Source: Romboutsia timonensis
Lineage (GTDB): Bacteria > Bacillota > Clostridia > Peptostreptococcales > Peptostreptococcaceae
Direction of reading: 5' to 3'
Length of the DNA stretch: 64,000 nucleotides
NCBI RefSeq assembly: GCF_900106845.1
Contig: NZ_LT629850.1
Span: 302,747-366,746, forward strand
This document shows, piece by piece, positions 33,593 to 37,066 of this stretch. The position numbers and the translations under genes were made by a program. The first letter of the stretch is position 1. Each line of letters starts with the position of its first letter. A model generated the notes under the pieces. The model was not told the DNA's origin. It saw only the letters and a program-made list of their open reading frames with translations, and ran no database searches.

Positions 33593-34876
33593 ATGGATAA
33601 TGTTGTATTAATTTTTATAACGCTAATGGCATCTACAGTATCGATAATATGTATTAGATACAATATAAGACTTAGAAATTATCTAAAAGTATTTATAGAA
33701 ATATCTAAACAAATAAGTAATAGAGAATTTCACTCTAGGCTAAATATAGATGCAAGAGGAGAACTTGGAGAATTAAGCAAAAACTTTAATGACATGATAG
33801 ATATAATGAATAGCAAAATCGAGGAAGTAGAATATAATCATCTTCAAATGACATCTATACTAAAAAGCATATCTCATGGAATTTTAGCTGTTGATATTGA
33901 TGGTAATATAATGCTTATAAATGAGGAAGCTAAAAGAATATTAAAGTGCGATAAATATGAGATTATAGAGGGGAAAAATATAAATCTTATAATAAATGAA
34001 TTAAGTCTACTAAAAGAAATTGCTTTATTTAAAGGATCTAAAGAAAGTAAATATATAGAACTTACAACTGATGATGAAATAGTGTATAGTATAAACCTAG
34101 ATCCTATATATTTGCAAGATATGGATAATATAATAATTGGTTCAATTATAAATATTAAAGATATAACTGAAAAAGTTAAATTAGAAAATATGAGGACTGA
34201 CTTTGTTGCTAATGTAAGTCATGAACTAAAAACCCCTCTTACATCTATAAGCGGATTTGTAGAAACCTTAAAGTTAAATGAAAATATAGATATAGAAACT
34301 AGAAATAGGTTTTTAGGAATAATTGAAAGTGAATCTGATAGGCTAAAAAGACTTATAGATGATATATTATTACTATCATTTATAGAAAAGAAAGAAACTA
34401 AATCTATAGAATTAGTGAATATATATGAAGTTTTTATGGAAGTATACGAAATGACGCATTACTTTGCTAAATCTAAGAATATAAATGTAAGCTATAAGTT
34501 TAGTGATCAAAATATATCAATATTATCTAATCGAGATTATGTAAAACAAATATTTTTAAATTTAATTGATAATGCCATTAAATATACACCAGAAAATAAG
34601 GATGTATATGTAGAAGTTTATTATGATAAAAATAACTTAGTAATCAAAGTAGGCGATAATGGAATAGGTATACCTAAAGAAGATATAAAAAGAATATTTG
34701 AAAGATTTTATAGAGTGGATAAAGCTAGAAGCAGAGAGGTAGGCGGGACTGGTCTAGGTCTTGCTATAACTAAACATATAGTAAAGAATTTAGATGGAAC
34801 TATAAATGTAAAAAGTGAATTAGGACAAGGTAGTGAATTTATTATTACTATACCAAAGAAAAATTTCCTTAAATAG
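33593..34876 (+). CDS. PhoR-like sensor histidine kinase without an extracellular domain
   Basis: 427 aa: a single membrane segment (~3-22), HAMP-like region (~25-80), PAS domain (~85-195), dimerisation/phosphoacceptor box FVANVSHELKTPLTSISGFVETL with His210, and ATPase with LIDNAIKYTPENK, GDNGIGIPKED and GGTGLGLAI. The phosphoacceptor text is typical of PhoR. Only a few residues precede the membrane segment, so the signal must be sensed in the membrane, in the PAS domain or through a partner. The last codons form part of the terminator. Confidence 0.9.
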   Translation: MDNVVLIFITLMASTVSIICIRYNIRLRNYLKVFIEISKQISNREFHSRLNIDARGELGELSKNFNDMIDIMNSKIEEVEYNHLQMTSILKSISHGILAVDIDGNIMLINEEAKRILKCDKYEIIEGKNINLIINELSLLKEIALFKGSKESKYIELTTDDEIVYSINLDPIYLQDMDNIIIGSIINIKDITEKVKLENMRTDFVANVSHELKTPLTSISGFVETLKLNENIDIETRNRFLGIIESESDRLKRLIDDILLLSFIEKKETKSIELVNIYEVFMEVYEMTHYFAKSKNINVSYKFSDQNISILSNRDYVKQIFLNLIDNAIKYTPENKDVYVEVYYDKNNLVIKVGDNGIGIPKEDIKRIFERFYRVDKARSREVGGTGLGLAITKHIVKNLDGTINVKSELGQGSEFIITIPKKNFLK

Positions 34877-34891
34877 AGGAAATTTTTTTTT
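34861..34891 (+). terminator. Terminator overlapping the end of the kinase gene
   Basis: AAATTTCCT / AGGAAATTT (34861-34869 with 34877-34885) followed by TTTTTT; the stop codon is in the loop. Confidence 0.9.
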
Positions 34892-34960
34892 GTTTTTGTG
34901 CAAACTAACTTTAATTACAGTTTTATGTTAGTAAGGTAGAAATAAAAGGAGTTGATACAG

Positions 34961-35893
34961 ATGAAGGAAAGTCTTATAGCAGATGACTTGTTTAGGCGTG
35001 CATTTATAGTAGCTTTACTTATAGGAGTACTGTGCAGAGGATTAGTATTACGGGTGACTGATAAACAGTATCCATCTAGACCTCAAGACTACTTAGAGCA
35101 GATAATAATATCTGGATTATCAGCATCTCTTGGTGCAATAGCATTTCCTGCTCTTATAGATAAAGAATTTTCAGCATTAACATTTTTTGCTGTAGCAATA
35201 CAACAATTTCAAGGTTTATCGCAAGAAGAAAGGATTACAATAGAAAATATAGATAATGGAGAGGTGGTGCCTAAAGGAGCAGCATATATAGAAGAAATAT
35301 CATCTACATATGAAAGTAGAAGTTATATAAGTCTATTTTCATCATTAGTTGCTTCAGTGGTATATATATATTGCGCTAGAGCTTATAAGTTTGGCTTTTT
35401 ACCATGTACCATTTTAGCTGCAATAGGTGGAGTTATAGTAGGATTTATTTTTAAAAGATATTTAAGAAGAAGTAGTATAGGAGATATAGCTGATGTAGTA
35501 GAGGCTAAGATTAATTTCGATGGTCCAATACTTAAAGTTAATGATGTATTTATAGAAAATATAGGTTTAGAGGATACTAGAAGTAAATATTTAAAAGAAG
35601 GTATTGCAATAGAGATTATACCTAAAAATATGAAGGCTTATGGGGTTGTTAGTGACTTGGGACAGAGACAAGCAGTGCTTCATAACTTATTTATTCACTT
35701 TGGGATAAATAAGGATATAGATGAAAAGGATTTATTAGCTACAACGAAAATAAATTTAGATAAAAATACAGTAGTTATTCCATATTTACCTCTTGTTAAA
35801 GATATTGATGAATTAATAAAAGTAGTGAAAAGTACACCTATATTAGAAGTATCTAAGGGAAAACAAAGTGCCTATAGTGGTGAAAAATTATAA
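34961..35893 (+). CDS. YIEGIA-family membrane protein, copy 1
   Basis: 310 aa from ATG 34961 (AAAGGAG at 34945-34951); a TTG three codons earlier is not needed. About four hydrophobic segments lie in the N-terminal ~180 residues, then a soluble tail. The name motif appears as AAYIEEISSTYESRSY (about residues 107-122), with IGDIADVVEAKI and LGQRQAVLHNLFIHFGI as shared blocks. The family is confined to spore-forming Firmicutes; no function is established to my knowledge. A paralogue and a small partner gene follow, making a three-gene unit. Confidence 0.82.
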   Translation: MKESLIADDLFRRAFIVALLIGVLCRGLVLRVTDKQYPSRPQDYLEQIIISGLSASLGAIAFPALIDKEFSALTFFAVAIQQFQGLSQEERITIENIDNGEVVPKGAAYIEEISSTYESRSYISLFSSLVASVVYIYCARAYKFGFLPCTILAAIGGVIVGFIFKRYLRRSSIGDIADVVEAKINFDGPILKVNDVFIENIGLEDTRSKYLKEGIAIEIIPKNMKAYGVVSDLGQRQAVLHNLFIHFGINKDIDEKDLLATTKINLDKNTVVIPYLPLVKDIDELIKVVKSTPILEVSKGKQSAYSGEKL

Positions 35894-35906
35894 GAGGGGT
35901 GAGAAA

Positions 35907-36839
35907 ATGGACAAGATATTTTTTATAGGAATTATTATTGGGATATTATCGAGACTTATAATGTTACATTTAGATCAAAAGCAATATCCAACTGAACCAA
36001 ATATTTTGCTATCGCAATTAGTTTTAGCATTTGTTGCATCAGCTTTAGGCTCTCTATTAGTACCAGCGCTTATAGAGCGTTCATATACATCTATTACTTT
36101 CTTATCTTTAGCAGCACAACAATTTAGGCAAGTGAGAGATAATAGAAGGGATACCCTACAAAATTTAGAAGATGTACAATTGATACAAAGAGGAAATGCT
36201 TTTATAGAAGAAATAGCTAGAACATATGAAGTTAGAAATTATACTTGTATAGTAACGTCATTTCTTACAGTAGGGATTTATTATATAATATCAAGCGAGT
36301 TCAAATTAGGAGATACTACGTCAATTATAATTAGCTCTATATGTGGATTAGTTTTAGCATTTATACTTAAAAAATTACTTACAAGACAGAGTATTGGTGA
36401 TATAGCAGATGTAGTGCCTTCTAAAATTAGTTTTGTAGATGAATGCATTATGCAAATAGGAGAATTAAAAGGTATAACTAATATAGGGTTAGAGGTAGAT
36501 AGAGAAAAATATTTATCTCAGGGGTTAGGAATAGAAATAATACCAAAGGATAAAAGTTATGCTAATGTAGGAACTATATATGATCCAGGTCAACGTCAAG
36601 CTATTATATATAATATATACTCTAGAATAGGAATTTTAAGAGAAGAAGATGAACCTGCTTTTTATCCGTTACCGAGAATGAATCTGAATAATGGAAGTCT
36701 TATGATAGCTGTTGTTCCAGTAGATAAAGATATAAATAAATTGATAGATGCAGTTAAATCATGTCCTATTTTATCTAGTGCAAAGGGTAAAAATGTATCA
36801 TTAAAAAATTATAAAATAGACAAGAAGGGAAGTGTATAG
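35907..36839 (+). CDS. YIEGIA-family membrane protein, copy 2
   Basis: 310 aa from ATG 35907. GAGGGGTGAG supplies the ribosome binding site; the open frame extends back 13 codons into copy 1 but without a site. It keeps the same layout as copy 1 with clear homology: AFIEEIARTYEVRNY for the name motif, SIGDIADVVPSKI, and DPGQRQAIIYNIYSRIGI. The two copies are well diverged, so the duplication is not recent. A possible hetero-oligomeric membrane complex with copy 1 is inference. Confidence 0.82.
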   Translation: MDKIFFIGIIIGILSRLIMLHLDQKQYPTEPNILLSQLVLAFVASALGSLLVPALIERSYTSITFLSLAAQQFRQVRDNRRDTLQNLEDVQLIQRGNAFIEEIARTYEVRNYTCIVTSFLTVGIYYIISSEFKLGDTTSIIISSICGLVLAFILKKLLTRQSIGDIADVVPSKISFVDECIMQIGELKGITNIGLEVDREKYLSQGLGIEIIPKDKSYANVGTIYDPGQRQAIIYNIYSRIGILREEDEPAFYPLPRMNLNNGSLMIAVVPVDKDINKLIDAVKSCPILSSAKGKNVSLKNYKIDKKGSV

Positions 36840-36841
36840 GT

Positions 36842-37042
36842 ATGGGAATGAATATAGGTATAACTGATTATACTCTGGGTATAATTACAACTGACAAAAA
36901 TATGAAACCAGTTGGAGGGTGTCCTATAATTTATGCAAATGATAATAAAGATTTGCAAAATAAAGCTATGCTAATGGCAAAAAGTGTTGGTGGAATGGTT
37001 CACGCTATTACTAAGGAAACTTTAATTATAGTTAAGCATTAA
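36842..37042 (+). CDS. Small capping-complex subunit for YIEGIA
   Basis: 66 aa soluble protein, MGMNIGITDYTLGIITTD..., of the small family that databases call 'capping complex subunit for YIEGIA'; I recognise it by its start, the GGCPIIYA motif and its fixed position after YIEGIA genes. Ribosome binding site GGAAGTG; two bases after copy 2 ends. The name implies a physical complex, but I know of no experimental demonstration. Confidence 0.75.
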   Translation: MGMNIGITDYTLGIITTDKNMKPVGGCPIIYANDNKDLQNKAMLMAKSVGGMVHAITKETLIIVKH

Positions 37043-37066
37043 AAGGTACCATATGGTACCTTTTAT
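37041..37066 (+). terminator. Terminator after the YIEGIA unit
   Basis: Palindrome AAAAGGTACCAT / ATGGTACCTTTT, starting in the stop codon region and followed by ATAAT. Confidence 0.8.

What the first reader, a model, noticed from the sequence alone, without database searches (positions are those of the whole stretch)
34961..37066. Tandem divergent YIEGIA genes with their small partner: a possible membrane complex of unknown role
Two 310-aa paralogues keep the same membrane layout and name motif but are well diverged, and a 66-aa soluble gene follows two bases later. The unit is flanked by terminators and lies upstream of DUF512-der and spoIVA. The stoichiometry suggests a hetero-oligomer capped by the small protein, probably in sporulation.
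Basis: partly seen in the sequence, partly recalled or inferred. Interest (0 to 1): 0.5.

Follow-up and report, generated by a model that had tools for sequence, protein, structure and literature searches.

The report
Split YphB-type spore membrane complex
This is a known but functionally obscure spore-membrane gene cluster (YIEGIA/YphB plus its small partner) whose membrane gene was duplicated in one bacterial family into an acidic and a basic copy, which looks like a self-assembling complex that became a two-part one.

Summary
Two 310-aa paralogues (38% identical, both Pfam YIEGIA) are followed two bases later by a 66-aa protein (Pfam YIEGIA_cap). Both families are already named, and the C. 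difficile operon matching by gene order, CD2636-CD2634, is reported as forespore-expressed with two of three products found in spores, so the sporulation guess is supported.

New here: one old duplication inside one taxonomic family. All 53 tandem loci examined (47 distinct genomes) hold A, B and one cap; in 8 of 8 sampled genomes elsewhere with two YIEGIA genes there are two caps. A helix motif nearly invariant in non-tandem proteins (R..R..E) was partitioned: A has Q..A/S..E, B has R..R..R/K/M, giving an acidic A and a basic B. This suggests an ancestral homo-oligomer that became an A-B hetero-oligomer; the five dispersed copies examined keep R..R..E. Outside the family a SpoIIP-type gene usually lies directly upstream, pointing to forespore envelope remodelling.

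Not shown: physical contact, stoichiometry, function. Residue coupling of YIEGIA with cap was about as strong as with an unrelated neighbour. SepF-like (cap) and MscS-like (YIEGIA) resemblances rest on predicted models and lack profile support.

The parts
34854..34892 (+). terminator of the upstream sensor kinase gene
   Evidence: terminator scan; fold -17.2 kcal/mol, z -6.2
34897..34907 (+). conserved TGTGCAAACTA element directly after the T run; candidate -10 region of the operon promoter
   Evidence: pattern TG.[AG][ACT]A[AC]A[CA]TA, chosen after looking at the sequences, in 51 of 52 upstream regions of tandem loci, about 0.9 expected in mononucleotide shuffles; the loci are related by descent; role as promoter is inferred
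34961..35893 (+). YIEGIA-A, 310 aa, acidic paralogue (hairpin motif Q84..S87..E90)
   Evidence: PF14045 E 1.1e-101; clade A 53 of 53 tandem loci, support 0.999
35907..36839 (+). YIEGIA-B, 310 aa, basic paralogue (hairpin motif R74..R77..R80)
   Evidence: PF14045 E 3.5e-103; clade B 53 of 53, support 0.997; model pLDDT 81, pTM 0.74
36842..37042 (+). YIEGIA_cap, 66 aa, predicted strand-strand-helix-strand-strand; two histidines nearly invariant in the family (H54 and the C-terminal H66)
   Evidence: PF21835 E 2.7e-18; H in 98% and 93% of 221 caps; model pLDDT 81.8
37040..37065 (+). stem-loop after the cap gene, likely terminator with a short T run
   Evidence: fold -14.6 kcal/mol, z -5.4; not listed by the terminator scan

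Best explanation
The three genes are the Peptostreptococcaceae form of the YphB/YIEGIA-cap system, a complex made in the forespore and kept in the inner membrane region of the spore. Each YIEGIA protein has four probable membrane helices, a long charged helical hairpin and an alpha/beta domain, the last two predicted to face the forespore interior; the small cap protein would bind on that side. In most spore formers that have the system one YIEGIA would form a homo-oligomer through the hairpin. Here the gene was duplicated once within the family, and the two copies divided the hairpin's charges (A acidic, B basic), so the working unit is most likely an A-B hetero-oligomer sharing one cap protein. 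Its likely job is to hold or regulate part of the forespore envelope machinery; outside this family a SpoIIP-type peptidoglycan amidase gene usually lies directly upstream. Shown: gene content, duplication history, charge partition, co-occurrence. Reported for C. difficile by others: forespore expression and spore association. Inferred: family name of the host (from relatives), topology, oligomer, cap contact, envelope role.
For: Co-occurrence: YIEGIA in 55 and cap in the same 55 of 71 genomes of the family; SpoIVA and SpoIIP each in 54 of 71, both missing only from the 75%-complete G031 among these 55. Phylum sample: YIEGIA 166 of 398, cap 165 of 398, the one exception (G360) lying at a contig end; of the 166, 164 also have a SpoIVA match (340 of 398 overall, 336 over its cut-off), lists compared by eye. 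Order: cap downstream on the same strand in 220 of 220 loci, two with a gap over 150 nt. Duplication: A 53 of 53 and B 53 of 53 monophyletic; A+B clade 0.997; A+B with the eight family singles a clade of 114, support 0.997. Partition: motif R84-R87-E90 is RRE in 158 of 167 non-tandem proteins (SRE 7, KRE 2); A is Q[AS]E in 53 of 53; B is RR[RKM] in 53 of 53. Hairpin net charge: non-tandem -1.05, A -4.55, B +1.42; non-tandem pairs differ by 5 or more in 0.2% of pairs, A and B of one locus by 6.0 on average. Five dispersed second or third copies with their own cap, of nine known, were examined and all keep R-R-E. Rate covariation over 20 genomes: A-B r 0.96, partial 0.60 after eight controls; the adjacent response regulator and sensor kinase 0.55. 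Expression: CD2636-CD2634 lowered in sigF and sigG mutants, CD2635 and CD2634 detected in spores (PMC3789822).
Against: No direct evidence of contact. Mean-field coupling of YIEGIA with cap (maximum 6.5, top-10 mean 5.9) was matched by YIEGIA with Der segments (maximum 7.2-7.7, top-10 mean 5.6-6.1); only the top-50 mean was somewhat higher for cap (5.0 against 4.4-4.6). Loss of conserved residues in A and B is not complementary overall: of 62 positions A lost 17, B 13, and 9 are the same, against 3.6 expected by chance. A and B each descend from one lineage, so the partition is one evolutionary event. B's hairpin charge alone is not outside the ancestral range (14 of 167 non-tandem proteins are at +1 or more), and B is also more basic in the C-terminal region (+4.2 against -0.7 in A and -0.6 in non-tandem proteins), so B may simply be basic. 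The swapped charges could be balanced within each hairpin. Much of the rate covariation is shared with SpoIVA and SpoIIP (A-SpoIVA 0.82, A-SpoIIP 0.78 after the six neighbours); in the full regression SpoIVA-SpoIIP (0.65) exceeds A-B, and B-cap (0.53) is no higher than B-SpoIVA (0.56). CD2636 was not detected in spores. B. [quoted passage not shown]
Confidence: 0.58

Rival explanations
1. A and B are separate homo-oligomers with different timing or partners (for example one for engulfment, one for maturation), and the charge differences reflect adaptation to different partners, not to each other.
For: A and B of one locus are only 33-40% identical; CD2635 and CD2634 were detected in spores but CD2636 was not (PMC3789822 Table 1); the nine shared losses show both left the ancestral state.
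Against: One shared cap gene in 53 of 53 tandem loci, whereas 8 of 8 other sampled genomes with two YIEGIA genes have two caps; very high A-B rate covariation; same operon and regulon in the C. difficile table. Absence of a membrane protein from a proteome is weak evidence.
Confidence: 0.27
2. YIEGIA is a gated channel of the MscS kind: membrane helices followed by soluble beta and alpha/beta domains forming a vestibule that the small protein plugs.
For: Foldseek's first PDB hit is a YnaI-MscS chimera (E 0.048, probability 0.35, TM 0.20); YnaI, MscS and MSL1 rows at Z 4.7-6.2 in the second look, the C-terminal part alone aligning at rmsd 3.5-4.0 over about 86 residues.
Against: The long MscS-type alignments have rmsd near 30 A, and de novo, TRAP and BAR proteins score alike or higher; profile comparison with 23 MscS proteins gave a probability of 0.3%; strong couplings pair residues 170-174 with 206-212, which does not fit a separate MscS beta domain.
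Confidence: 0.08
3. The cap protein is a SepF-type polymer-forming protein, and the complex is a curved membrane scaffold rather than a capped oligomer.
For: The cap model's best PDB matches are SepF C-terminal domains (Foldseek probability up to 0.97, E 0.11); in the second look six of the first seven rows are labelled SepF and the seventh, 3p04, I recall as C. glutamicum SepF (best Z 4.3, 50 residues, rmsd 2.6).
Against: Small model from seven sequences; no E-value under 0.001; hhalign against 31 SepF proteins scored 14.0, and 2 of 13 control segments scored higher (18.1, 14.5); the alignment covers only SepF residues 85-136 in the best row.
Confidence: 0.12

Closest known systems
B. subtilis YphB (YIEGIA, PF14045) with its cap (PF21835)
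   Same: same two Pfam families; B. subtilis is the only one of 14 control genomes that matches each of them; sigma-F dependence reported (PMC12017682 passage)
   Different: here a fixed tandem pair with one cap and a charge-partitioned hairpin; the B. subtilis genes themselves were not fetched or compared
C. difficile CD2636-CD2635-CD2634 operon
   Same: same order of sensor kinase, two membrane proteins and small protein, with spoIVA further on; sigma-F/G dependent (PMC3789822)
   Different: identified by gene numbers and annotation only; sequences of that strain were not compared here
SpoIIP-YIEGIA-arCOG02159 neighbourhood noted by PMC5898192
   Same: a SpoIIP and yphB neighbourhood was described there (passage) and a SpoIIP-type gene is seen upstream in 135 of 158 non-family loci here
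   Different: not found in any of 62 loci of this family, some with short flanks; here a response regulator and sensor kinase lie upstream

Membership tests
YIEGIA protein family (PF14045) | full-length match above the Pfam gathering score | tested here: met
   339.9 and 344.8 bits against a cut-off of 27
YIEGIA protein family (PF14045) | the name motif YIEGIA and other near-invariant residues | tested here: inconclusive
   motif reads YIEEIS in A and FIEEIA in B; A lost 17 and B 13 of 62 positions at least 90% conserved in 158 non-tandem proteins
YIEGIA protein family (PF14045) | occurs in spore formers | tested here: met
   164 of 166 positive genomes in a phylum sample also have a SpoIVA match, lists compared by eye; in the family 44 of 60 good genomes, the same number as for SpoIVA
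YIEGIA_cap (PF21835) | match above the gathering score | tested here: met
   65.8 bits against 24.1
YIEGIA_cap (PF21835) | forms a complex with, and caps, YIEGIA | tested here: inconclusive
   fixed gene pairing, but coupling about equal to control; no solved relative found by sequence
SepF (PF04472) | sequence profile match | tested here: not met
   no SepF hit for the cap in Pfam at E 1; hhalign at control level
SepF (PF04472) | fold of the C-terminal domain | tested here: inconclusive
   best structural matches are SepF, but Z 4.3 and E 0.11
MscS channel (PF00924) | sequence profile match | tested here: not met
   no MS_channel family among the hits of A, B (E 1) or of 14 other YIEGIA members (E 10, weak hits partly filtered); hhalign probability 0.3%
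MscS channel (PF00924) | fold and heptameric pore | tested here: inconclusive
   low-Z rows, the long ones with very high rmsd

The most novel reading that the evidence does not exclude
A sporulation-specific homo-oligomeric membrane scaffold evolved into an obligate, electrostatically matched A-B hetero-oligomer in one bacterial family, and the ancestral complex works with a dedicated SpoIIP-type amidase to steer peptidoglycan remodelling from the forespore side.
Probability: 0.25. Interest if true: 0.68.

Novelty: new variant of a known kind. Interest (0 to 1): 0.47.

Why it matters
YIEGIA and its cap are widely conserved forespore membrane-complex candidates without a known job. The split copies give a testable handle: if A's acidic and B's basic hairpins meet, charge-swap mutants define the assembly interface, and the adjacent SpoIIP-type gene of other spore formers suggests where to look for a phenotype (envelope remodelling, maturation, germination). 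In C. difficile the matching operon is reported as forespore-expressed and spore-associated, so the result bears on how such spores are built.

Tried and rejected
Coupling analysis between YIEGIA and cap (214 proteins, effective number 138.5): top scores beat random pairing (6.5 against at most 4.4 in six permutations), but a control with four Der segments from 117 of the same loci reached about the same or higher values, so it was set aside.

Mirror-tree with six neighbour genes alone looked decisive (23 loci, A-B partial 0.93); adding SpoIVA and SpoIIP showed that most of it is a shared sporulation-gene rate (20 loci). The weaker result is the one reported.

MscS and SepF membership: not supported by profiles. 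Overall complementary loss of conserved residues: not supported, because shared losses exceed expectation. Sigma-G/F/E consensus scan upstream: scores indistinct; only a conserved element after the terminator stood out. Search of viral contigs for more relatives: none. NCBIfam gave no hit for A or cap and none above cut-off for B. Literature: 'YIEGIA' occurs in 4 papers of the library, of which passages of 3 were seen; 'yphB' in 19, 17 of them unrelated by title; a recalled B. subtilis name, seaA, gave nothing relevant in the listings; the Pfam accessions and DUF3189/DUF1614 gave 6 papers, unrelated by title.

The non-tandem set is 158 proteins (without L082 and the eight family singles, but with four dispersed copies) and 167 (with them). 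Of 30 MscS loci 23 proteins passed a motif filter. The second copies of G106, G178, G422 and G467 were not fetched.

Full report
What is there. The window holds, at 34961-35893, 35907-36839 and 36842-37042 on the + strand, two 310-aa proteins and a 66-aa protein. The long ones are members of Pfam YIEGIA and the short one of Pfam YIEGIA_cap; none reaches an NCBIfam cut-off. A terminator hairpin precedes the unit and a strong stem-loop follows it. The nearest named relative of B, at 92% identity, is an uncultured Romboutsia, so the window is probably from Romboutsia or a close relative in the Peptostreptococcaceae (inference). Its own genome has exactly these two YIEGIA genes and one cap.

Distribution. 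In 71 genomes of the same taxonomic family, 55 have YIEGIA (46 with two, one with three, eight with one) and the same 55 have the cap (one each, two in the genome with three YIEGIA). SpoIVA and SpoIIP occur in 54 each, the only absentee among the 55 being a 75%-complete genome. In a phylum sample of 398 genomes, 166 have YIEGIA and 165 the cap; in the exception the contig ends 44 bases after the YIEGIA match. A SpoIVA match is in 340 of 398 (336 over the cut-off), and in 164 of the 166 by comparing the lists by eye; the two without (G142, G349) are draft assemblies. So in this sample the system is nearly confined to genomes with SpoIVA but present in only about half of them. The cap follows YIEGIA on the same strand in 220 of 220 loci; in two of these the gap exceeds 150 nt.

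The tandem pair. All 53 tandem loci (47 distinct genomes and 6 named records that may repeat some of them) have A, B and one cap. In the tree of 273 proteins A and B are each a clade and together one clade (support 0.999, 0.997, 0.997); with the eight single-copy proteins of the family they form a clade of 114 (0.997), the eight being a clade of their own (0.98). One duplication within the family explains this. Eight genomes outside the family also have two YIEGIA genes, and all eight have two caps; one genome (G379) has two cap matches and one YIEGIA, against the rule. Sharing one cap between two YIEGIA genes is therefore special to this family in what was sampled.

Divergence of A and B. Of 62 positions at least 90% conserved in 158 non-tandem proteins, A lost 17, B 13 and nine are the same, where 3.6 would be expected by chance. 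The overall pattern is thus not complementary. But one place is: a helix motif R-x-x-R-x-x-E, RRE in 158 of 167 non-tandem proteins, is Q-x-x-A/S-x-x-E in 53 of 53 A proteins and R-x-x-R-x-x-R/K/M in 53 of 53 B proteins. The 40-column windows with the largest A-B charge difference start at columns 65-84, around this motif: mean net charge of columns 82-123 is -4.55 in A, +1.42 in B, -1.05 in non-tandem proteins. Pairs of non-tandem proteins differ by five or more charges in 0.2% of cases; A and B of the same locus differ by 6.0 on average; but 14 of 167 non-tandem proteins are at +1 or more, so B alone is not extreme. B's C-terminal region is more basic as well (+4.2, A -0.7, non-tandem -0.6). 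Five dispersed second or third copies, each with its own cap, keep the ancestral motif (four further ones were not fetched). These copies are a natural control: duplication by itself does not break the motif. The simplest reading is that a face meeting its own kind in a homo-oligomer became an acidic face meeting a basic one. It remains a single evolutionary event, and pairing within each hairpin is not excluded.

Covariation of rates. Among 20 genomes the distance matrices of A and B correlate at 0.96, B and cap at 0.83, A and cap at 0.76. They also correlate strongly with SpoIVA and with the non-adjacent SpoIIP, which supports a sporulation role and explains most of the signal. After regression on all other controls A-B is 0.60, B-cap 0.53, A-cap 0.27; for comparison the response regulator and sensor kinase next door (taken as an interacting pair from general knowledge) give 0.55, SpoIVA-SpoIIP 0.65, B-SpoIVA 0.56, B-SpoIIP 0.52 and cap-SpoIIP 0.51. 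This favours a link of A with B, leaves B-cap undistinguished from general sporulation covariation, and proves no contact. Residue coupling of YIEGIA and cap was about equal to the Der control.

Structure. The model of B (14 sequences, pLDDT 81, pTM 0.74) has five helices, then an alpha/beta domain. Several top couplings fit its order of elements: 71-105 joins the two hairpin helices, 8-122 and 125-143 membrane helices, 170-174 with 206-212 two strands; others join membrane and soluble parts and may be noise; distances in the model were not measured. Positive residues suggest that hairpin and C-terminal domain face the cytoplasm (inference). PDB searches gave no significant match; MscS-type rows recur but profiles do not support them. 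The cap model resembles the SepF C-terminal domain best, again without profile support. No relative with a solved structure was found by sequence. Two cap histidines are nearly invariant, 98% and 93%.

Expression and literature. In PMC3789822 (section on the sigma-G regulon and the first quarter of the regulon overview with Table 1 read; other passages by search) the genes CD2636, CD2635 and CD2634 form one operon with ratios 0.20/0.34, 0.33/0.50 and 0.27/0.65 in sigF/sigG mutants; the promoter is marked 'sigma-G?'; CD2635 and CD2634 were detected in spores and CD2636 was not; the authors write that CD2635 and CD2636 may be involved in germination. The listed genes between CD2641 and CD2629 (sporulation protein, nrdR, 'cytotoxic factor', sensor kinase, the three genes, spoIVA) match the window's YlmC-type gene, nrdR, pgeF, kinase, A, B, cap and spoIVA; sequences were not compared. 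PMC6174930 (passage) names CD2635 among spore proteins, calls it a virion protein and repeats the germination idea. PMC8624511 (passage) lists a B. cereus protein with a YIEGIA homologue among uncharacterised spore inner-membrane proteins. PMC12017682 (passage) states that B. [quoted passage not shown] A short element directly after the upstream terminator is conserved in 51 of 52 tandem loci (pattern chosen after inspection, loci related by descent) and may be the forespore promoter's -10 region, fused to the terminator; this would fit the question mark in the C. difficile table (inference).

Operon context. Outside this family a SpoIIP-type gene lies upstream of YIEGIA in 109 of 126 loci longer than 6 kb and in 135 of 158 of all lengths, ending a median of 3 nt from the YIEGIA open frame; three of three such genes tried match Pfam SpoIIP; DUF3189 genes follow in 92 of 126. 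The 23 loci without it include the four dispersed copies. Of 28 non-family genomes chosen for few contigs, 24 have two or more SpoIIP-family genes; 10 of 10 family genomes tried have one, not adjacent. PMC5898192 (passage) had noted the SpoIIP-yphB neighbourhood. The adjacent, extra SpoIIP suggests that YIEGIA works beside a peptidoglycan amidase acting on the outer side of the same membrane. This is the basis for the envelope-remodelling proposal, and it is guilt by association.

Verdict. A real, conserved membrane system of known families, forespore-expressed where that was measured; the tandem A/B form is an old, family-specific variant best read as a hetero-oligomer.

Noticed in passing
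L104:2782-4005, L147:2731-4029, L143:4808-6058 and 135 of 158 non-family loci in all: A SpoIIP-type gene lies directly upstream of YIEGIA, mostly in genomes with more than one SpoIIP-family gene; DUF1614 (L104) lies further upstream and DUF3189 genes downstream.
   Followed up: partly
34897-34907: TGCACAAACTA-type element right after the terminator T run, in 51 of 52 tandem loci.
   Followed up: partly
L062 (G278): YIEGIA reading frame with one in-frame TAA in a genome that has SpoIVA; pseudogene or assembly error.
   Followed up: no
L082 (G030:C1:1799872-1800705): A third, dispersed YIEGIA with its own divergent cap in a genome that also has the tandem pair; it keeps the ancestral motif.
   Followed up: partly
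L117 (G379): Two cap matches after one YIEGIA gene in overlapping frames, possibly a frameshifted cap.
   Followed up: no
phylum sample: 10 of 101 genomes show no SepF match, several of them with YIEGIA.
   Followed up: no
L173 (G425): The cap lies about 1.7 kb downstream of YIEGIA, the only insertion over 300 nt seen between them in 220 loci.
   Followed up: no
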